Source of the DNA: Anaerolineae bacterium
Lineage (GTDB): Bacteria; Chloroflexota; Anaerolineae; B4-G1
Direction: 5' to 3'
Length of the DNA stretch: 8,872 nucleotides
NCBI GenBank assembly: GCA_030612185.1
Contig: JAUWOI010000154.1
Location: forward strand, 1 to 8,872
A model generated the notes under the pieces. That model made no database searches. It was not told the origin of the DNA and saw only the letters and a list, made by a program, of their open reading frames with translations. The translations under genes and the position numbers were made by a program. This document shows, piece by piece, positions 1-8,872 of this stretch. How positions within the stretch are numbered: position 1 is the stretch's first letter; every line of letters starts with the position of its first letter.

Positions 1-60
1 CTTACCTAAAAAACAAGCTGAAATTATCTTTCCCTCTGAAAAGGGAAGTTACTGTCCCTA
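1..60. other. AT-rich tail, possible edge of inserted DNA
   Basis: GC is 22/60 here against 40/60 in the next 60 bases. It holds a short hairpin, TTCCCT at 30-35 and AGGGAA at 42-47, and the motif AGTTACTGTCCCTAC at 47-61, which resembles ends I have seen beside IS200-like (REP-associated) transposases. The segment coincides with loss of family similarity in the DprA-like protein. The identity of the inserted DNA is a guess. Confidence 0.35.
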
Positions 61-442
61 CTGTGGTCACAAACCTCCTGAAGGCATCCTCCAGAGCCGA
101 GTGCAGGTGGGCGGGCGGGCGCCGGTACAGCCCCCGGGCCAGAACAAGCACCAGGGGCCAATCGCCACGTGACAACACGGAGAGCGCTTCATTCTCAACG
201 GGAGCATGGAAACCACTGATGATGATGGGACCATGTCGTCGCCACTGCCTGGCCAGATCATGCACAGCTAGTAGCACGCCGGCAGGAGCCTTGGTCGAGG
301 AGAGCAAAGCCAGGGCGGGTTCGCCTTGGGTGACTCGCGTCCAGATGGCCGGGTCACCCAAAAAGACTGGAGAGTCAAGGGTGTATGGGAGAGATTCTTC
401 TGCCAGAAAGGCGACATCTGGCCATGATGCACGGCCGTTCAT
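2..442 (-). CDS. DprA/SLOG-like protein, probably C-terminally truncated
   Basis: Protein of 146 aa resembling the short DprA-related (DNA-processing, Rossmann/SLOG fold) family. Recognisable parts are FLGDPAIW at 27-34, ALALLSSTKAPAGVLLAVHD at about 43-62, the hallmark ISGFHAPVENEAL at 75-87 (GFHSPxExxxL type) and RGDWPLVLVLARGL at 92-105. In relatives, as I recall, the chain goes on for several dozen residues with a segment like GRLLLLSPF. Here it changes after about residue 121 into an unrelated low-GC tail (VTTVGTVTSLFRG...) and stops at the window edge, so it is probably truncated by inserted or rearranged DNA. The ATG at 442 directly follows the TAG of the DUF262 gene, with GGAG 9 nt before the ATG. 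DprA relatives bind single-stranded DNA, and SLOG proteins can bind nucleotides; the role here is unknown. Family placement is from pattern memory and moderately sure. Confidence 0.68.
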   Translation of the reverse strand: MNGRASWPDVAFLAEESLPYTLDSPVFLGDPAIWTRVTQGEPALALLSSTKAPAGVLLAVHDLARQWRRHGPIIISGFHAPVENEALSVLSRGDWPLVLVLARGLYRRPPAHLHSALEDAFRRFVTTVGTVTSLFRGKDNFSLFFR

Positions 443-2479
443 CTACCACAGCTCCACATCGTACTCCTCCTCAGGAATACCAATCGCCTCGATAATGTTG
501 GAACAAAGCTGCTTAATGGTATCAGCGTTCAGATTGACATACACCCACCAACCGTTTTCAAGTTGGTGGGATCTGCTGAGAGGCTCTCTGGTGAAATACT
601 TGGGTAGTTCAGCTACGACCTGCTCTTCAAACTTGTTGCCGCTCCACTGGGACGCCACCTCTGCCGTCTGGCGCAAGACATCGCGCCAACTGTTCACAGG
701 ATAGACCTCGTCCAGGATGACCACGGCTTTCGGCTTTTCGTTCCAGCCCGCGGCCGTCTCGCCCAACTGGGGCCAGATCTCGGTGATCTTGACCATCAAC
801 CATTGCGCCCGACTGCGGATGGACTGGCCATCCCAAACCGCTGGCGCCATTTCGCCAAAGCAGGTCTGGTTGAGCAGCAGACCATGTTCGGCCAGTTTTT
901 GCCGTTTGGTCTCATAGATGGCGTTGGATAGTTGCGAGTTCCAGCCCTGGGTCACCACCGTGAGGTTGCCGAGGGTGTGCAGCAAGTCGTAGTCCTGTTG
1001 CCAGTTGTCGCCAAGATGGTGCTTCCATGCCTCTGTGGGCGTTTGCGGCATGATGTGTTCGATGGTCGGATTGTCGCTGAGCACGGTGTACGCGCCGCTG
1101 CCTGCCGACAGATGGCGATTGATGGAATCGAAAATCAAGGCCAGCTTTTTGCGGGTGTAACTATCCTTCTTATAGATGCTAATCATCTCAGCCGCCTGTC
1201 TCAGCCGCGCATCGGTTGGCTCGTTTCTGGTTCCCAATGCCTGACACAGCGACGCCGCAAAGTCTGTCACGTCCACATCCTTGACCAGCGCCGGGAACAT
1301 CTTGTTGAGGTAGTTGGTGGAATCCCGGTTGAGGAAACGGCGCACCATGTAGGTCTTGATGGTGCGCAGGCCAGCCTGGAACTCATCCAGGGCTAGGCGG
1401 CCCTGTTGCCATTCATTGTACATGAAAAGCAGGAAGGGATAGCCGGTGGCGCTTTCCAGCACGTTGAGGCGCTCCAGTTGCTGCCGCACCTCCTTGTTCG
1501 GCTCATGCTGCGGGCGCAGGAGGCGGTCGTAGTAGCCGGCAAAGCGTTTGAGCGTGGTCAGCTCTTGCTCGAAATCGGCCACACTCATGACCTCGCCTTG
1601 ATCTCGAAAACGGGAATAAACGTGCTCCTGATTAACCAGCACGCCCGACAAGTAGGCAAAGTAGTGGCGCAGGAAGGCCGTGAGCTCGCCCAGGCGGGAG
1701 CGCCCGACCGTGCGCTTTTCCAGCAGCATTTCCTCGATGGGCGACCATAGTTCGGTAAAGACCACCTCCTGGCGTTCGGGCGGCAACTTCATGGCAATAT
1801 AGTTGCGCACCAGATCGGCCTGGGTCAGGGATTTGCCCTTGTAATTCAGGCTTTCAAAGATCTCGTAGGGGCGTTCGTTCTGGTTGAGGTTGATAAAGAC
1901 GACTTGCAGGCTGATCATCAGCACGTTGAAGAGACGGTTGGGGTCAATGTCGCCGCTCTTGAAACGGTTGCCCAGTTGCGTGGTCAGGTAGTCGAAGGCC
2001 AGTGGGATCTTGGACTCCACGCTAGGTGGAGGCGTCTTGTTATCGATAATGGCGCAGTAACTGACCCGGTCGCCATACTTGAGCGTGGGCAAGAGCTTGT
2101 AATAGAGATTCCCGCTTTCGTCCTGGTTAACCAGCATCCTACGCACTTTGCGTTGCAGGTTGGCGTGGTCGCTATCAAGGAGCCGGCCCAGTGCGCACAG
2201 CAATAGGGAGATGGTGGCGAGGCGTTGCTGGCCATCCACCAGGCGAAAGACCGGCACCGTACCCGCCTGGGTGCCGTCGTTGATCACGACCAGGGAGCCC
2301 ATGAAATGTTCGGGCGGCTGCTCCTCGTTATATATCTCGTAGACGCCAAAGATATCCTTCATCAGGGTATGCCACTCCCGTTTCTCCCAAGTGTATTCCC
2401 GCTGAAAGTGGGGCAGGACGTAGTGCACGTCGCCGCCGGAGCTGAAGACTTTGACCATGTGCAGGCTGTCGGCTTTCAT
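443..2479 (-). CDS. DUF262/DUF1524 (GmrSD-type) nuclease
   Basis: Predicted NTP-dependent nuclease of 678 aa with the GmrS and GmrD halves fused. The N-terminal DUF262 domain shows LPHFQREYTW at 22-31 (QREY 26-29), FMGSLVVI at 59-66, the hallmark DGQQR at 82-86 and FESLNYKGKSLTQADL at 208-223. The C-terminal DUF1524 (His-Me/HNH-like) domain shows EHIMPQ at 474-479, GNLTVV at 504-509 and conserved Asn and Lys residues at about 514-525, so both active sites look complete. Residues 580-678 carry an extra domain with SWRDVL at 597-602, which I recall from the ends of other restriction-related proteins but cannot name. Known members (GmrSD, BrxU, SspE) cut or restrict DNA in response to base or backbone modification. 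The ATG at 2479 directly follows the methyltransferase TAA with purine-rich AGGAGG and GAGG upstream, indicating translational coupling. Pairing with a methyltransferase suggests it reads, or is restrained by, the operon's own mark; that is inference. Confidence 0.95.
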   Translation of the reverse strand: MKADSLHMVKVFSSGGDVHYVLPHFQREYTWEKREWHTLMKDIFGVYEIYNEEQPPEHFMGSLVVINDGTQAGTVPVFRLVDGQQRLATISLLLCALGRLLDSDHANLQRKVRRMLVNQDESGNLYYKLLPTLKYGDRVSYCAIIDNKTPPPSVESKIPLAFDYLTTQLGNRFKSGDIDPNRLFNVLMISLQVVFINLNQNERPYEIFESLNYKGKSLTQADLVRNYIAMKLPPERQEVVFTELWSPIEEMLLEKRTVGRSRLGELTAFLRHYFAYLSGVLVNQEHVYSRFRDQGEVMSVADFEQELTTLKRFAGYYDRLLRPQHEPNKEVRQQLERLNVLESATGYPFLLFMYNEWQQGRLALDEFQAGLRTIKTYMVRRFLNRDSTNYLNKMFPALVKDVDVTDFAASLCQALGTRNEPTDARLRQAAEMISIYKKDSYTRKKLALIFDSINRHLSAGSGAYTVLSDNPTIEHIMPQTPTEAWKHHLGDNWQQDYDLLHTLGNLTVVTQGWNSQLSNAIYETKRQKLAEHGLLLNQTCFGEMAPAVWDGQSIRSRAQWLMVKITEIWPQLGETAAGWNEKPKAVVILDEVYPVNSWRDVLRQTAEVASQWSGNKFEEQVVAELPKYFTREPLSRSHQLENGWWVYVNLNADTIKQLCSNIIEAIGIPEEEYDVELW
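452..455 (-). promoter_or_regulatory. Ribosome binding site of DprA-like gene
   Basis: GGAG on the minus strand, 9 nt before the ATG at 442, located within the last codons of the DUF262 gene. It is a modest site, in keeping with coupled translation from the upstream gene. Confidence 0.55.
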
Positions 2480-5400
2480 TTAATCCTCTTCCTCCTCGCC
2501 GTCATGGAACAATTCATCGCCCATGCGGTACTTGATATCGTAGTTGATGATAAAGTCGAGTTCCTCATCCGTGAAGCCGTAGTGCTGCGCTAGTACGTGG
2601 TCAATCTCGTCAATGATCGGCTTGCTCAGTTTAGTAATAATCGCCTGAATGGTAAGTGTATCATGTCTGAATCGCATTGTTCTATCTTCAGAGTTGGCAC
2701 ACAAATCAGCCATCAATTCATCTGCTAACCCAGCCAGCAAGACCCCGTACTTGCCATCTGCAAGCCTGTCCAAATCCACCGGAAAGCTATTCACTTCACG
2801 CTTGTTTACATGGCGGCAATCTGAAAAGACAGTAATAAACCAATAGAACAGGTTTGAGTTGAGGCAGCAAAGCGCAGCCTTGGCATGGAGATCGCTACCG
2901 AAGTTGAGTTCCTTGAATTCAGAAGGGGGCCGACGTTTGCCTCGTCCATCAAGCACACGTGGAACGAAATTCAGAACCTGAAGAAAATAACCAACCTTTC
3001 GCGAGTAGAAAACTCGATGTTCACTTCCACGAGTGAAGAATAATCCAAGGCGCCGTCTTTGCCGGGAAAGTTTCAGTATCAAGCCTTGCTCTAGCTGAGA
3101 AGATAGCTTGGCCAGACTGTTGTCGACCAACGATCCTTCAGCGTTTGCATACTTCAATCCTTGGAACACCATAGATCGCTCTGTTTTGAACCATTTGTTG
3201 TAACGAGTGGAAAATCTGATCGGATTCTCAGTTTGCTCACCAATTAAGTGGATGGTTAGACGAGAGTGCTCAAGACCGTCGAAGAGGCGTGAGGGACGGT
3301 CATCAAAGGAACTATAGCAGAGCTCACGACTAGTAATCAAGCCCTGGAGACTCCTGTAGCGGTCAGTTGACACAGAAGAAACTGGAACGATAAGACCCAA
3401 TCGTCCATTCCCAGAACAGAGCCGCAGGCATCTCTCTATCACTAATGCGTAGAGATTGCCGGCTCTCTCACAGGTGTAGCCAGACGTGTTGTAGTCTCCA
3501 ACTGCCCTAAGTTCGACGTATGGTGGATTCCCGACTATCGCATCAAAGCCACCTCGCATGAGAATGCCATAGAACTCGATAAACCAGTGAAAGGGCTGGT
3601 GGGAGGCCAGCCACTTCTTGTACGCTGCTGGCTTGGTCACATCTACCCCATACCCCTGTGCCAGGTAGCGGTTCAATTCGTCTTCCAGTGCTTTCAGCCG
3701 CTGCCGCAGCGTCTCTTTTGCCTCGATGGAATCCTGGGTGTACTCGCGCATGTCGTGCGCGGTCTGCATGGCCCGGAACTCTTTAAACAGGCGGTCTACA
3801 CCCTCTGCTCTTTCCTCAATTTGCTGTAAGGTGTCCAGGTCTTCGCTAGACAGCAACTTGGCCTGGCGTACCCCGTCGCCAACACGTTCACTGCGTATCG
3901 CCTTCTGAACTTCTTCTCGCGTGGCAAAGCCCACCAGCGTATTCCCGGCGCGGATGTTGAAGTCTATGTCAGGCAGGGGCTCGATGTTCTCTACCCGATC
4001 CACCTGGGCCACCAACTTCAGGAAGAAGCGCAACTTGGCGATCTCTACCGCCTCGGCCATGATGTCCACTCCGTACAGGTTGTTGACCACGATGGATTTG
4101 AGGACAAAGTAGCTTCGGTTGGGCCTGTCCTGAGCGTAGCCGAAGGAATGCCGCTCCATCTGCTCCAGCACCTGGCGGAAGTCCCGGTACTTGTGCGGAT
4201 GGTGGTCGCCATGCGCCAGTTCGGCCACGAACGCTTCCATCCGACCCAGGCACGCCTCATACAGCGGCTCCAGGATGTTGAGCGCGGCGAACAGAAAAGC
4301 GCCCGACCCACAGGTGGGGTCTAGCACCGTCACCCCGTTGATCGCTCGCCAGAAGGCGCGCAGCAACTCCGGTCCCTCGCAGTTCTCTATCACGTCCTGG
4401 GCAAACTGCCGGATGTCGAGGTTGTAGGTGATCAGGTCGTTGATCGAACGCACCTCTCCGTCCACCAGTTTAAGCCACACTTCTTCGTACCGTTGGCGCC
4501 GCGCCACGGTCTCCCGCCAGATCTCGGTGGGCAGCGCGTATTCACCCGGCGCGCGGGTGTTCCACGGGCCGCGCTGGCTCACGTCGTTTATCCCCGCCGC
4601 GATCTCCGGCGGCAAAGCCAGGCCGGTTCCCTTGCGCACCGCTTCGTAGATGTAGCGGTCGGGGTCGGCGGCCAGCAGCGCCCAGACCGATTGCTCTCCC
4701 TCAAACGCGACGCGACACTTTTCCCTCGCCTGGTCGAAGAGAAAGGGGATGACGGTGTTCTTGCTGATGTATCCGGTGATGTCCTCTTTGGTGTAGTAGG
4801 CCCCCATCTGCTTCTGGTTGATGTACTTCTCGAAGATGTAGCCCAACACGTCGGGGTTGATCTCGCGGTCATCCCGCAGCGGCCGGTCGTCCAGATGCCA
4901 CTGGTAATCGTCAAAAAAGTCAAAGAGCCGCTCGAAGGCCGCGTCGGGAATCTGGATCGTCCGACCGTGCAACTGCTCTACCTCGTGCTGCTGGAAAATA
5001 TCGCCGTTCAGAAAGGGAATGTCGCCCAACAAGGCCCGAACCTGCGGCGACCGCTCCTCCGGCGTCCTGGCGAATCCCTCGAAGAACAGCGGACACAGAA
5101 AATCGGCGTAGAAGCGGTCTGGAGAAACCAGGCTTTTTCCCAGAAACCCGGTTTCTTGACTTTGCGCCAGTTTGTGCCGCAAGTAGTCCGGGTCGCCATC
5201 CAAAAAGCCCTTCTTCTGGATAAAGTAGATGAACATGAGTCGGTTCAACATCACCGACACGTACCAGCGCTCCATCTCCTCATCCGGTATCCCTTCGAGG
5301 AACTTCTGAAAGGCGTCGCGCTCCTTCTTGAAGCGGTCGTAGAACCTTTTGGTGGCTCGTTCCACGTTGAAGGCAGCCCGTACGCGACCGGTCACATCCA

Positions 5401-5836
5401 CCAGGGTCAGGGTCTCTTCTTCCTCAAAACTGAAGGCGATGGCTTGTAACTTCTGAATCAGCGAGTCGCCCGGCTGCTGGATGGTGTGGTGGTGTTCCCG
5501 GCTGGCCAGCGGCCTGCCCACTTCCCGCCGCACCCATTGCCAGATCTGCTCAGTGCGCTCCCCGTCAACGTAGATGATGAAATGCTCGCGCAGGGAGCGG
5601 GCCACCTGCCGCTCAATCTTGCGCCGCGTGGCATACGGGGGGATGGTCTCCACGGCACAGGTAAAGGCCACCACACCCCGCTTCTCGGCCACGGCTTGCA
5701 GCATGAACTGCCCTTGGCCAGCGTCAATCTCCACGTCCAGGCTGGTGGTGTAGTTATCCCAGCCCAACTCCTCAATGAACAGAGACTCAAAGTCAAATTC
5801 CTTGAGGTGGCGTCGGGCCCGTGCCATATTGAGCAT
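2480..5836 (-). CDS. Eco57I-like adenine-N6 DNA methyltransferase, type IIG/PglX-like
   Basis: Predicted S-adenosylmethionine-dependent DNA methyltransferase of 1118 aa that methylates adenine N6. The frame is open back to 5977, but the ATG at 5836 is chosen because AGGAGG lies 6 nt before it; the longer start would overlap the helicase gene and translate a palindromic repeat. Numbering from 5836: an N-terminal domain (1-190) in which I see no clear PD-(D/E)XK or HNH motif; GAYYT at 345-349, typical just before the catalytic core; SAM-binding motif I DPTCGSGAF at 506-514; NLYGVDI at about 586-592; catalytic NPPY at 770-773; a probable target-recognition region at about 780-1060; and a conserved-looking C-terminal tail ending in EEEED. 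Repeat-derived peptides interrupt residues 228-238 and 564-572. Base composition drops from just before NPPY to about residue 1065, suggesting exchange of the specificity region. It could be a solitary type IIG enzyme, but the operon suggests it is the modification and specificity subunit of a multi-gene system. Confidence 0.94.
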   Translation of the reverse strand: MLNMARARRHLKEFDFESLFIEELGWDNYTTSLDVEIDAGQGQFMLQAVAEKRGVVAFTCAVETIPPYATRRKIERQVARSLREHFIIYVDGERTEQIWQWVRREVGRPLASREHHHTIQQPGDSLIQKLQAIAFSFEEEETLTLVDVTGRVRAAFNVERATKRFYDRFKKERDAFQKFLEGIPDEEMERWYVSVMLNRLMFIYFIQKKGFLDGDPDYLRHKLAQSQETGFLGKSLVSPDRFYADFLCPLFFEGFARTPEERSPQVRALLGDIPFLNGDIFQQHEVEQLHGRTIQIPDAAFERLFDFFDDYQWHLDDRPLRDDREINPDVLGYIFEKYINQKQMGAYYTKEDITGYISKNTVIPFLFDQAREKCRVAFEGEQSVWALLAADPDRYIYEAVRKGTGLALPPEIAAGINDVSQRGPWNTRAPGEYALPTEIWRETVARRQRYEEVWLKLVDGEVRSINDLITYNLDIRQFAQDVIENCEGPELLRAFWRAINGVTVLDPTCGSGAFLFAALNILEPLYEACLGRMEAFVAELAHGDHHPHKYRDFRQVLEQMERHSFGYAQDRPNRSYFVLKSIVVNNLYGVDIMAEAVEIAKLRFFLKLVAQVDRVENIEPLPDIDFNIRAGNTLVGFATREEVQKAIRSERVGDGVRQAKLLSSEDLDTLQQIEERAEGVDRLFKEFRAMQTAHDMREYTQDSIEAKETLRQRLKALEDELNRYLAQGYGVDVTKPAAYKKWLASHQPFHWFIEFYGILMRGGFDAIVGNPPYVELRAVGDYNTSGYTCERAGNLYALVIERCLRLCSGNGRLGLIVPVSSVSTDRYRSLQGLITSRELCYSSFDDRPSRLFDGLEHSRLTIHLIGEQTENPIRFSTRYNKWFKTERSMVFQGLKYANAEGSLVDNSLAKLSSQLEQGLILKLSRQRRRLGLFFTRGSEHRVFYSRKVGYFLQVLNFVPRVLDGRGKRRPPSEFKELNFGSDLHAKAALCCLNSNLFYWFITVFSDCRHVNKREVNSFPVDLDRLADGKYGVLLAGLADELMADLCANSEDRTMRFRHDTLTIQAIITKLSKPIIDEIDHVLAQHYGFTDEELDFIINYDIKYRMGDELFHDGEEEED
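2484..2496 (-). promoter_or_regulatory. Ribosome binding site region of DUF262 gene
   Basis: AGGAGG lies 11 nt and GAGG 5 nt before the ATG at 2479. The same bases encode the acidic EEEED tail of the methyltransferase, so the polyglutamate end doubles as the initiation signal for the next gene. Confidence 0.75.
2640..3560. other. Low-GC specificity segment inside methyltransferase
   Basis: Hand counts give 24/60 GC at 3181-3240, 26/60 at 2821-2880 and 26/60 at 2641-2700, against 43/60 at 4621-4680 in the same gene and 42/60 at 2221-2280 in the next gene. One line within the segment is higher (32/60 at 3241-3300). It starts just before the NPPY codons (3529-3518) and ends before the conserved C-terminal tail, so it covers the probable target-recognition region. 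Edges are approximate. Confidence 0.7.
4121..4147. repeat. Dispersed CCTTCGGCTACGCTCAGGAC-type repeat in methyltransferase
   Basis: The minus strand contains CCTTCGGCTACGCTCAGGAC followed by AGGCCC, a short sequence I recall as a very common dispersed repeat in Chloroflexota-like genomes. It is translated in frame as SFGYAQDRP, residues 564-572, between the QMERH helix and the NRSYFVLKS segment. As I recall, relatives there read roughly RHPNRRYF with no extra residues, so about 8 residues (24 bases) look inserted. Confidence 0.72.
5123..5156. repeat. 34-bp palindromic repeat, copy C, in-frame in methyltransferase
   Basis: Same length and ends as copies A and B, with a decayed left arm (AGAAACCAGG) against an intact right arm (CCCGGTTTCT). 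On the minus strand it encodes ETGFLGKSLVS, residues 228-238 of the methyltransferase, in the helical region before the catalytic core. The substitutions suggest an older copy. Confidence 0.88.
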
Positions 5837-5842
5837 CTGCGT

Positions 5843-5848
5843 CCTCCT
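5843..5848 (-). promoter_or_regulatory. Ribosome binding site of methyltransferase
   Basis: AGGAGG on the minus strand, 6 nt before the ATG at 5836. It decides the start: an in-frame start at 5977 lies inside the helicase gene, and the ATG at 5827 is too far from this site. Confidence 0.88.
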
Positions 5849-5869
5849 GGCGAGATAGTGGCGAGATAG
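5848..5869. repeat. Tandem 11-bp repeat next to palindrome copy B
   Basis: TGGCGAGATAG occurs twice head to tail (5848-5858 and 5859-5869), between the methyltransferase ribosome binding site and palindrome copy B. The second copy runs into the first two bases of the palindrome. It may be a duplication left by insertion or by replication slippage. Confidence 0.85.
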
Positions 5870-5901
5870 AAACCGGGTTCTTTCTGAATAACCCGGTTTC
5901 T
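5868..5901. repeat. 34-bp palindromic repeat, copy B, at helicase stop
   Basis: Perfect 12-bp inverted repeat, AGAAACCGGGTT at 5868-5879 and its exact complement at 5890-5901, with a 10-base loop. It fills more than half of the 64-nt gap between helicase and methyltransferase. Its edge supplies the last base of the helicase TAA stop (5903-5901). As RNA it would form a stable hairpin between the two genes. Confidence 0.93.
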
Positions 5902-8872
5902 TAGACCAACCCCAGCGAACAGATAATGCGCGGTTCCTGTGTCTCTTGCGCCTCCTGCACCAGGCACAGTTTATCATCTTCGTACAAGTTCACCACCAGT
6001 TCGGCCAGTTGTTCGTCCTGCACGCCGCTGCGCAGTTGCCGGTTGAGCTTATCTTTGGCGCTCTCCCGCAACGGGAAGCGGTAAATCTGTTCCACTGCTT
6101 TGACGAGGGCTTGTGAAGCAGGCAATGACTCAAACAATGTGCCGTGGAGCCGCCTGGCATACTCGCTCAGTCGCTCATAAGTCTTGAACCGCGCCCCCGA
6201 CGGGCGGCCCAACTGCCCGCCCACAAACTTGCTCTCGGTCATAATGTGCGCCACGCCGCTTTGTACTATATCGTGATGGCTCTCCTGGCGCGGCAGGGCA
6301 GGGGTGTCCAAAGCACATTCGGCAGCGCGCAAGACGGCAAACTGGGATTCGCTGACGCTGTTGCCGTCCCGGTCCATCCAGGCCAGGGCGCTGTTGCCCT
6401 CAGTGGTATTCAAATAGACCAGCACCCCAGCCGGGCCAGAACGACTGAAGTCGTCACTACGAGTCCCCAACGCGGAGCGCTCACGGTCGCCGGCGGGATG
6501 CGCTTTGGTCGAGTAGACCACCGCCGGCAGTTTGGGGATAACCGTCTTTAGTTTGGGGTTGGCATCGGTGGCGTTCTTCCATATCTGGTAAGCGTGAGAC
6601 ACCAGGTCAATCTCGGTGTCCTGTTCATCGTCCAAAATGCCCGTCTTTTCGTGGTACAGGTCAATGAGCGGACGGTCGTCGGCGTCATCTTCAAAGAACG
6701 CCTCATCTGTGCCCACCACCTCGGCGTTTTCCCGCAATCGCTGGCGCAGCCGTTCGCGCAGGCGGATGATGCGTTCCACACCCTCGGCGGGCCAAAAGGT
6801 GTAACACAAGATGTCCGCGGACTGTTGCCCAATGCGGTCAATGCGCCCGGCCCGTTGAACCAGCCGGATGATGGCCCAGGGCAAATCATAATTAACCACG
6901 ATGAAGCCATCTTGCAGGTTTTGCCCCTCGCTGAGGACGTCGGTAGACACCAGCACCCGCAATTCGTCGTCGGACCTGATCTGCTCTCGCTTGTTGTTGC
7001 TCACCGGGCTAAAGCGCCACGCCAACCCGGTCGGATCGGATGAGCCGCCGGTGACGCCAGCCAGTCTGTCCACGCCCCGCGCCTGTAGTTGCTGCTCCAG
7101 GTAGCACACCGTGTCGGCGAACTGGCTGAAAACCAGCACCTTGTCCTGCGGATGCGTCTCCGTCAGCAACCGGTGCAGTCCGTTCAGTTTGGCGTCCTGA
7201 TCCACGTCCCACTCGCCAAACAGTTGCCAGATACTCAACAGATCTCTGGCATCAGCCCGCAAGTGTTGGCCCAGGCTTCTCTTGAACAGGTCGGGCCGTA
7301 TCCACTTGAAGCGGCGCTTATAGCGGGTGGCATAGAGCTCATAGGCGGCGGCAGCGCGTTCCCTGAAGGCGCCCTTAGAAACCGGGTTTTTTTCCCAAAA
7401 CCCGGTTTCTTCACCAGCGTCTTCACCAGCGTCGTCGTCAAACAGATCAAGCGTGCTGTAATCAACCGCGTCCGCGTCTTCGTCCTCAATGCGGGTATCC
7501 AGCATCTCTGCGCCCTGCGTGCCAATGGGCAGCGGCAGGTCGTTTTCCAGGGCGTGAATAAAGATATGGTTGCGCAGGATGTGCCGCTCGACCGAAAGCA
7601 AGAAAGAGTATCCGCTGCTCTCCAGTCGCTTGAACAGGTTGGTGCGGCAAAAGCCCATCAATCGCCTACCGCCCCGCGAGAGGTCATCCAATATCTTGCA
7701 TTCCCTCTCGCTGGGCGATTGCTTTGGTTTCCCTACCACATAGTTTCCCAAACCGTAGCGGGGCAGTTCGAGGCTATTGATGGTGTCCACCACATTGTCT
7801 GTGTACATCCGCGCATACTGGTCGTTGGGGTCGCTCTCGTCTATGGGGAAACGCACTGTCTCGGGATGACGGGTGGGAAAGTAAGCGCGGGAACCGTCGG
7901 CAAAGGACAGATATTTGCGCCCGCTCTCCGGGTCTGGCGTGGCATAGTTGTCGCGGACAAAGCTGCGCGTGCGCCGCACCATGAACAGGCTCATCAGTTC
8001 TCGCCAATCGTCGGCGTATTCGCTCTTCTCGAACGCTTCCAGGGAACGCAAGGGGCACTGGTGGCGGCGATTGAACTCGATCTCGCCAATCTCGCGCAGC
8101 AGTCTTTCCGGGCGAATGCCTAGATCGGCTGTCTCTGGCACGAACAGACGCAGTTGACTCGACAAGTCCAGATAGGTCTTGTTGTACGGGGTGGCCGACA
8201 GCAGGATGCAACGGCTCTCATTCTTCTGAACGTATTCGTGAATCGCGCCATACCGTTTGCCCTCGCGGTTGCGCAAGTTCTGGCTTTCGTCAATCAAGAC
8301 CAGCCGATACCGTCGCAGGTCGGGCAACCCGTTGATGACGCGGCTGATGGACAGCACTTTGGCCCGCAGGCCATACTCGTCCCGGTAGAACTCCCACATC
8401 TTGACCAGGTTCTTGGGGCAGATGATCAAGGTCTCTATCGAGTAGTCCTCCTCGAAAACCTTGGCCAGCGCCGTGCCCATCAATGTTTTGCCCAGCCCGA
8501 CCACATCGCCGATCAGCACACCGCCCCGCCGGTTCAAATGTCGCGCGGCGATCTTGACCGCCGCCGTCTGGAAATCAAACAGTTCGTCACGCAACCGCCG
8601 GGGAATGGCGAACTCGGTCAGGCCCGCCCGCGCTTCGCGGGAGAGGTGATAGGCCATCTTGAGGTAAATGTAATAGGGCGGGATCAGATTCTCACTGGCC
8701 CAACTTTCATCAATGATCTCGACCAGTTCCTGCGAGATGTCCACGCACCAGCGGTCGCTCCAGCGATCCTCGAACCAGCGGGCCAGTTTGTCGCCCGCAT
8801 CCTGGTCCACCACGTCAATGTTCAGTTCGCCCTGTCCGGCCAGGCCGGAGAAGGTGAGGTTGCTGCTGCCCA
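5901..8872 (-). CDS. PLD-domain/SNF2-type helicase fusion, 5' partial
   Basis: ATP-dependent superfamily 2 (SNF2/RapA-like) helicase or translocase with an N-terminal phospholipase D-type nuclease domain, mostly outside the window. A GTG at 8813 could be taken as the start, but the frame stays open to the edge and the 19 codons before it read GSSNLTFSGL...QGELNID, the second half of a PLD (HKD) domain; 8813 is therefore rejected as the start. Numbering from 8813: Walker A GLGKT at 106-110, DESQ (motif II) at 175-178, SAT (motif III) at 206-208, VFSQF (motif IV) at 561-565, STDVLSEGQN (motif V) near 623-632 and QRAGRIDRIGQ (motif VI) at 653-663, so both RecA lobes look intact. An acidic linker at about 441-469 separates the lobes and contains a repeat-derived insertion. 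Residues 760-970 form a C-terminal region I cannot assign. It is the first visible gene of the operon. Seen: helicase motifs and PLD tail. Inferred: role in defence. Confidence 0.95.
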   Translation of the reverse strand, partial: GSSNLTFSGLAGQGELNIDVVDQDAGDKLARWFEDRWSDRWCVDISQELVEIIDESWASENLIPPYYIYLKMAYHLSREARAGLTEFAIPRRLRDELFDFQTAAVKIAARHLNRRGGVLIGDVVGLGKTLMGTALAKVFEEDYSIETLIICPKNLVKMWEFYRDEYGLRAKVLSISRVINGLPDLRRYRLVLIDESQNLRNREGKRYGAIHEYVQKNESRCILLSATPYNKTYLDLSSQLRLFVPETADLGIRPERLLREIGEIEFNRRHQCPLRSLEAFEKSEYADDWRELMSLFMVRRTRSFVRDNYATPDPESGRKYLSFADGSRAYFPTRHPETVRFPIDESDPNDQYARMYTDNVVDTINSLELPRYGLGNYVVGKPKQSPSERECKILDDLSRGGRRLMGFCRTNLFKRLESSGYSFLLSVERHILRNHIFIHALENDLPLPIGTQGAEMLDTRIEDEDADAVDYSTLDLFDDDAGEDAGEETGFWEKNPVSKGAFRERAAAAYELYATRYKRRFKWIRPDLFKRSLGQHLRADARDLLSIWQLFGEWDVDQDAKLNGLHRLLTETHPQDKVLVFSQFADTVCYLEQQLQARGVDRLAGVTGGSSDPTGLAWRFSPVSNNKREQIRSDDELRVLVSTDVLSEGQNLQDGFIVVNYDLPWAIIRLVQRAGRIDRIGQQSADILCYTFWPAEGVERIIRLRERLRQRLRENAEVVGTDEAFFEDDADDRPLIDLYHEKTGILDDEQDTEIDLVSHAYQIWKNATDANPKLKTVIPKLPAVVYSTKAHPAGDRERSALGTRSDDFSRSGPAGVLVYLNTTEGNSALAWMDRDGNSVSESQFAVLRAAECALDTPALPRQESHHDIVQSGVAHIMTESKFVGGQLGRPSGARFKTYERLSEYARRLHGTLFESLPASQALVKAVEQIYRFPLRESAKDKLNRQLRSGVQDEQLAELVVNLYEDDKLCLVQEAQETQEPRIICSLGLV
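6439..6462. repeat. Dispersed ACGACTGAAGTCGT-type repeat in helicase C-terminus
   Basis: An interrupted palindrome ACGACT-GA-AGTCGT at 6441-6454 is followed by CACTACGA. This matches my memory of a frequent dispersed repeat in Chloroflexota-like genomes. It is read in frame as part of GTRSDDFSRSG in the unassigned C-terminal region of the helicase, just before VLVYLNTTEGN, which looks family-conserved. Confidence 0.6.
7377..7410. repeat. 34-bp palindromic repeat, copy A, in-frame in helicase
   Basis: Perfect 14-bp inverted repeat, AGAAACCGGGTTTT at 7377-7390 and its exact reverse complement at 7397-7410, with a 6-base loop. Read on the minus strand it encodes ETGFWEKNPVS in the acidic linker between the two helicase lobes, about residues 469-479 counted from 8813. 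It matches copies B and C in length, ends and orientation. Confidence 0.93.
7408..7431. repeat. Tandem 12-bp repeat in helicase linker
   Basis: TCTTCACCAGCG occurs twice in direct succession, overlapping the right end of palindrome copy A. It encodes a four-residue duplication (DAGEDAGE) in the acidic linker. The simplest explanation is slippage in an unconstrained linker. Confidence 0.85.
8814..8872 (-). other. C-terminal half of PLD (HKD) nuclease domain
   Basis: Nineteen complete codons ahead of the GTG at 8813, in the helicase frame with no stop, read GSSNLTFSGLAGQGELNID. The GSSNxTxxGL...ELN pattern is the strand and loop that follow the HxK of a phospholipase D-type catalytic motif in PLD-helicase fusions. 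The HxK itself must lie beyond position 8872. Confidence 0.85.

What the first reader, a model, noticed from the sequence alone, without database searches (positions are those of the whole stretch)
1..8872. Candidate four-gene defence cassette: PLD-helicase, adenine methyltransferase, GmrSD-type nuclease, DprA/SLOG-like protein
Two large enzymes and two smaller effector-like proteins are encoded in one tight operon with start/stop abutment. It offers a translocase, a mark, two possible nucleases (PLD and HNH-like) and a DNA- or nucleotide-binding fold. Each part occurs in known systems (DISARM, BREX, GmrSD, SspE), but I do not recognise this exact set, and no DISARM DrmA/DrmB or BREX PglZ/BrxC is in the window.
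Basis: partly seen in the sequence, partly recalled or inferred. Interest (0 to 1): 0.8.

Follow-up and report, generated by a model that had tools for sequence, protein, structure and literature searches.

The report
Unnamed restriction-like bacterial defence locus
This stretch of bacterial DNA carries a widespread, apparently unnamed defence gene pair, a DNA-cutting motor and a DNA-marking enzyme, often followed by a DNA-sensor-like protein, while the extra nuclease gene beside them is a passenger rather than a fixed part.

Summary
The four genes are there, all on the minus strand, but they are not a four-gene unit. In relatives from about 20 phyla, a PLD nuclease fused to a SNF2 motor (HEL) is followed by a BrxX/Type-ISP-like adenine methyltransferase (MT) in 77 of 77 fetched loci where both were called. 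A DprA-family protein (S) joins them in 38 of 53 loci with at least 3 kb held after MT. The MT-S gap is a slot for varying second effectors. The GmrSD nuclease (G) here is one passenger: one direct neighbour plus one fragment in 87 loci, and beside HEL in 0 of 17 HEL-bearing Chloroflexota genomes. In this contig S lacks its conserved C-terminal half and HEL its N-terminus. Best reading: an ATP-dependent restriction-modification-like system, a split Type ISP with a PLD nuclease, plus a DprA-like modulator. A relative sits on Synechocystis plasmid pSYSX, which encodes M.Ssp6803IV (GA-m6A-GGC); that it is this gene is recalled. DISARM, BREX, ARMADA and BREX-related partners were not recurrent neighbours. 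My ten paper searches showed no description of HEL-MT-S.

The parts
5901..8870 (-). HEL: PLD nuclease (only its last part inside the window) fused to a SNF2 helicase/translocase; N-terminus cut by the contig end
   Evidence: SNF2-rel_dom and Helicase_C above Pfam cut-offs; full-length relatives carry PF13091 PLD; HxK..GSxN..E in 79 of 80, Walker A in 77 of 80, QRxGRxDRIGQ in 78 of 80 full-length relatives
2480..5836 (-). MT: N6-adenine DNA methyltransferase, gamma order (motif I, then NPPY, then target region); probable start 5836
   Evidence: Eco57I, MmeI_Mtase; model matches CamA, BrxX, LlaGI; 50% identical to the pSYSX methyltransferase; NPP[YFW] in 56 of 56 relatives
443..2479 (-). G: GmrSD-type Type IV restriction enzyme (both domains), read here as cargo
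   Evidence: GmrSD_N 105.2 bits (cut-off 33.2), GmrSD_C 75.6 (23); beside the core in L046 and as a fragment in L063, of 87 loci
2..442 (-). S: DprA-family (SLOG-type Rossmann) protein, truncated after residue 119 of about 201
   Evidence: relatives match PF02481; comparison with P0122
5868..5905 (.). palindromic repeat in and next to the HEL-MT gap; two more copies inside the MT (5123-5160) and HEL (7377-7414) genes

Best explanation
The locus is an ATP-dependent restriction-modification-like defence system. Its fixed core is HEL + MT, S is a common accessory, and the MT-S gap is a slot for swappable second effectors, filled here by G. Proposed working: MT reads an asymmetric site through its fast-evolving C-terminal region and methylates one adenine of host DNA (motifs shown; activity inferred). 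On unmarked DNA, HEL moves along the duplex with its SNF2 motor, and its PLD half-site, which needs a partner chain, cuts when two complexes meet (inferred by analogy to Type ISP enzymes and single-HKD nucleases). S, a DprA-fold protein, senses single-stranded DNA or restrains HEL (inferred). G attacks DNA whose phage-made base modifications hide it from HEL-MT (inferred from its family). In this copy S is truncated and probably not working.
Against: No test of phage resistance or cutting exists for this family in anything I saw. S is absent from the whole genome in 6 of 20 genomes searched, so it is not essential. In Chloroflexota, one genome (G042) has MT before HEL and one (G143) has the two apart; 3 of 17 HEL genomes gave no MT and 2 MT-like genomes no HEL. 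The HEL-S and HEL-MT distance correlations have no control for host ancestry. The pSYSX methylation motif is tied to this gene only by my recall.
Confidence: 0.6

Rival explanations
1. A fixed four-gene defence system (HEL, MT, G and S all needed), as first proposed.
For: MT-G and G-S abut in this contig, and G directly follows MT in L046.
Against: G in 2 of 87 loci, one a 64-residue fragment; in 17 HEL-bearing Chloroflexota genomes G relatives occur in 4 and none lies near HEL (some of these cores are cut by contig ends). Other loci have other genes in the same slot.
Confidence: 0.05
2. A toxin-antitoxin-like abortive system: HEL is a DNA-cutting toxin, S its antitoxin, MT only marks self.
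For: DprA homologues are antitoxins in shosTA, syrTA and rqlHI (PMC9122126, passage); S matches PADLOC PsyrA in 5 of 5 relatives scanned; S distances follow HEL's (r 0.67, n 32) more than those of the MT core (0.51).
Against: HEL-MT stands without S in 14-15 of 53 loci (L044's S lies just outside the fetched stretch), and S is broken here beside a HEL that is intact as far as it is seen.
Confidence: 0.15
3. MT is a self-contained Type IIG enzyme, and HEL is an unrelated neighbour.
For: PADLOC's best model for MT is a Type IIG restriction enzyme-methyltransferase (1208 bits); the helix-strand order of MT residues 16-90 resembles a PD-(D/E)xK fold.
Against: The acid of (D/E)xK is A, S or C in 40 of 40 aligned MTs, and MT travels with HEL.
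Confidence: 0.1
4. About this copy only: the S truncation is an assembly artefact at the contig end and S is intact in the organism.
For: The divergent tail is only about 80 nt and ends at the contig edge.
Against: Nothing direct; S ends in a stop codon before the edge, and the tail had no match in the plasmid collection.
Confidence: 0.35

Closest known systems
BREX-related (BR) Type-2 systems, also reported as Hma (PMC12839542; abstract, sections 28 and 30, part 1 of section 35, and passages seen)
   Same: HKD/PLD nuclease fused to the N-terminus of a Swi2/Snf2 helicase, with an N6 adenine methyltransferase; auxiliary effectors including GmrSD are described around BREX and BR loci
   Different: BR is built on a DUF499 ATPase and, in Type-2, DUF3780. 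DUF499 was matched by at most 1 of 63 large neighbours. No DprA-like protein is mentioned there ('DprA' 0 occurrences).
Type ISP restriction-modification enzymes (LlaGI, LlaBIII; PMC3874165, passages)
   Different: Split over two chains; nuclease is PLD, not Mrr-like; extra DprA-like gene and cargo slot
ARMADA / DISARM (PMC12458937; abstract and passages)
   Same: Snf2-type helicase next to a PglX-like methyltransferase
   Different: YprA-family helicase (DrmA/ArmC type) and DUF1998 are not recurrent here; HEL scores 106 bits against a cut-off of 610 for DrmD
CglI / NgoAVII ATP-dependent restriction enzymes (recalled)
   Same: PLD nuclease with an SF2 motor; HEL relatives are named 'NgoFVII family restriction endonuclease'
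   Different: There nuclease and motor are separate subunits (recalled); different methyltransferase
PsyrTA and ShosTA (DprA-fold partner)
   Same: S matches PsyrA and the ShosA structure 8zva
   Different: Partners there are a RecQ-like helicase or a phosphoribosyltransferase (recalled in part; PMC9122126 passage), not a restriction-modification pair
Gene pair on Synechocystis PCC 6803 plasmid pSYSX (L161)
   Same: HEL 53% identical to P0001 and MT 50% identical to the window MT, in the same order
   Different: A VapC-family toxin gene and a small gene sit between HEL and MT, and no S was called beside it

Membership tests
BREX-related Type-2 (Hma-like) | N-terminal HKD/PLD on a Snf2 helicase | tested here: met
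   PF13091 in relatives; motif in 79 of 80
BREX-related Type-2 (Hma-like) | DUF499 ATPase in the locus | tested here: not met
   Not in the window; at most 1 of 63 large plus-strand neighbours matches any family outside the listed ones (63 of 71 such ORFs scanned, minus strand not scanned)
BREX-related Type-2 (Hma-like) | standalone DUF3780 gene | tested here: inconclusive
   None in the window nor among 20 smaller neighbours scanned, which is a part of all neighbours
DISARM | DrmA helicase, DrmB (DUF1998), DrmD | tested here: not met
   HEL 106 bits vs DrmD cut-off 610; DUF1998 in at most 1 of 63 large neighbours
BREX | PglZ and BrxC with PglX | tested here: not met
ARMADA | YprA-family helicase as third core gene | tested here: inconclusive
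   No recurrent helicase partner: Helicase_C in 3 and DEAD in 2 of 63 large neighbours; no YprA-specific model was run
Type IIG restriction enzyme | nuclease site in the methyltransferase chain | tested here: not met
   no (D/E)xK acid at position 50 in 40 of 40 MTs; the fold of residues 1-155 was barely tested
Type ISP | gamma-class methyltransferase with C-terminal target region | tested here: met
   motif I before NPPY and LlaGI match over 164-1086
Type ISP | single polypeptide with Mrr-like nuclease and translocase | tested here: not met
   HEL and MT are separate genes and the nuclease is PLD
Type ISP | cutting needs two head-to-head sites | not testable with these tools
   needs biochemistry
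DprA family (PF02481) | Pfam gathering score | tested here: met
   5 of 6 full-length relatives of S; the truncated window copy itself matches no family
GmrSD Type IV enzyme | GmrSD_N and GmrSD_C domains | tested here: met
   105.2 vs 33.2 and 75.6 vs 23 bits

The most novel reading that the evidence does not exclude
HEL-MT-S is a distinct defence system spread over many phyla that has escaped naming because its parts are filed apart (HKD+Snf2, Type IIG, DprA). The DprA-fold protein makes restriction conditional: it binds single strands or stalled forks exposed by phage replication or by HEL itself and licenses or brakes the PLD cutter, while the gap between MT and S is a dock for a rotating second effector.
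Probability: 0.3. Interest if true: 0.75.

Novelty: new variant of a known kind. Interest (0 to 1): 0.52.

Why it matters
It would add a split, PLD-based relative of Type ISP, a DprA-fold partner that I have not seen described for a restriction system, and a slot that can be mined for new effectors.

Tried and rejected
DISARM, BREX and BREX-related membership: defining partners not found (table). MT as a Type IIG nuclease: rejected for the missing acid, though residues 1-155 were barely covered by the structure comparison, so their fold is open. G as a core part: rejected. Window DNA and the S tail had no match in the plasmid collection. Of 80 viral rows only L081-L087 entered the neighbourhood counts; the other 73 (38% identity or less) were dropped. 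My first ORF selection found S in 35 loci; the six-frame profile search found 40, and the later figure is used. A designed repeat protein was the top PDB sequence hit for S and was set aside as an artefact. Of 71 plus-strand neighbour ORFs of 550 aa or more, 63 were scanned together, 7 singly by Pfam, one (1725 aa, L041) not at all; 36 minus-strand ones were not scanned. The summary tables list only the 25 families with most members. The protein list mixes this family with other helicases (8000 scored, 120 shown), so it gives no family size. 'Not described' covers only paper searches in an open-licence library; some searches were about Synechocystis or ShosA.

Full report
What is in the window. 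Four long ORFs lie on the minus strand. HEL (8870-5901) is open at the window edge; the window appears to be the whole public contig. The 120 best relatives of HEL (94-65% identity, most of them 1110-1200 aa) nearly all carry PLD, SNF2 and helicase C domains. Among the closest relatives that bear a name most are Chloroflexota (Anaerolineae, Ardenticatenales), and a close S relative is from an Ardenticatenaceae bacterium. The host is therefore probably a Chloroflexota bacterium (inference).

Corrections. MT's longest ORF starts at 5977, but the 50% identical pSYSX homologue aligns from residue 49, so the start is probably 5836; the extra 47 codons read through a palindromic repeat (5868-5905). 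HEL and MT are then about 64 nt apart; MT-G and G-S abut. S is 146 aa; the relative P0122 is 201 aa and 83% identical over residues 1-119, after which the window protein has 27 unrelated residues and a stop. The lost half carries the conserved RN..VAALA stretch and what follows.

What the genes are. Pfam: SNF2-rel_dom and Helicase_C (HEL), Eco57I and MmeI_Mtase (MT), GmrSD_N and GmrSD_C (G). PADLOC's best models: C3a139 'HKD+Snf2' (144 bits), a Type IIG model (1208 bits), Orf5 (439 bits). Full-length S relatives match DNA_processg_A above cut-off in 5 of 6 and PADLOC PsyrA in 5 of 5. The S model (pLDDT 93.4) matches ShosA and bacterial DprA best. Genome-wide the S profile scores most S genes at E 1e-38 to 1e-95, and open frames of 346-603 aa that look like ordinary DprA at 1e-11 to 1e-19, so S looks like a clade of its own.

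Which genes belong together. I used 80 genome loci and 7 of 80 viral loci. HEL was called in 84 and MT in 79 of these 87, both in 77; in all 77 MT follows HEL on the same strand, 50 bp or less apart in 48 and over 300 bp in 25. The 7 HEL loci without MT end within about 0.9 kb after HEL. S is found in 40 loci, 38 of 53 with at least 3 kb held after MT, always on the core's strand: 12 within 300 bp of MT, 27 further on, one (L039) before HEL. Of the 15 without S several are cyanobacterial or alphaproteobacterial; for L044 the S gene lies 81 bp beyond the fetched stretch, whereas 6 of 20 whole genomes have no S match at all.

Chloroflexota sample. In 151 genomes HEL is in 17, MT in 16, both in 14: adjacent with MT after HEL in 12, MT before HEL in one (G042), apart in one (G143). 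S at E below 1e-30 is in 10; 7 of these have HEL, with S within about 3 kb of HEL or MT on the same contig in 6 and at a contig start in one (G101); of the other three, G109 and G148 lie near a contig start and G096 is the weakest match. Fisher p is about 4e-15 for HEL/MT and 6e-6 for HEL/S.

The slot. Of 20 neighbours scanned with Pfam, 15 lie between MT and S. Eleven of these 15 had a match: OLD/AAA_21-type ATPases (three), HNH, MTaX1-HNH, SIR2 and HerA (one pair), YhcG PDDEXK, Fic-RhuM, a nucleotidyltransferase and DUF433. Of the 5 from loci where S was not seen, 3 had a match, none typical of defence (a histidine kinase, a Sel1-trypsin protein, a BatA-VWA protein). PADLOC adds HEC-01A, SIR2, DSR1-like and PDC-M30A matches; 4 of the 10 proteins given to it had none. 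G is such a gene: a G homologue follows MT in L046, and a 64-residue fragment lies in L063, of 87 loci. In the 17 HEL-bearing Chloroflexota genomes G relatives occur in 4, on another contig or at least 480 kb from HEL; some cores there are cut by contig ends. GmrSD as an auxiliary effector in BREX loci is described in PMC12839542 (section 35, part 1).

The role of S. Its distances follow HEL's (r 0.67, n 32) more than those of the MT core (0.51), without control for host ancestry. It is missing in some loci and broken here, so it is more likely a modulator than an essential part. Sensing of single-stranded DNA is inferred from DprA.

Novelty. The nearest description found is BREX-related Type-2, which shares the HKD-Snf2 fusion and an N6 methyltransferase but is built on DUF499. 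PbeABCD-type loci (PMC10853773, passages) also have an HKD-SF2 protein, with an ABC ATPase and DndE instead. My ten searches of an incomplete library showed no account of HEL-MT with a DprA-like protein. I rate it a new variant of a known kind: ordinary chemistry, unusual third gene and cargo slot.

Noticed in passing
window 5123-5160, 5868-5905, 7377-7414: A 38-nt palindromic repeat (AGAAACCGGGTTTCT type) occurs three times, once inside MT, once inside HEL and once in the HEL-MT gap. Relatives P0001 and P0033 show similar residues at the HEL site, so the element seems to insert in frame in variable linkers.
   Followed up: partly
window about 4124-4147 (MT residues 564-571): MT has an 8-residue insertion (SFGYAQDR) where most relatives have a gap; it may be a second short repeat that entered the reading frame.
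   Followed up: no
window 2501-3500: G+C falls to 0.47-0.48 over the MT target region, against 0.56-0.62 in the other windows, which fits recent exchange of that region.
   Followed up: no
L161:15487-22545: On pSYSX a VapC-family toxin gene sits between HEL and MT, and a multiubiquitin, E2/UBC, ThiF and DUF6527 operon lies just beyond on the other strand.
   Followed up: no
L043 and G012 (L039), G032, G131: Some HEL genes are split or carry an internal stop: decayed copies occur.
   Followed up: no
L063:18960-19151: A 64-residue fragment 67% identical to the start of G lies downstream of MT, perhaps the remnant of a lost cargo gene.
   Followed up: no
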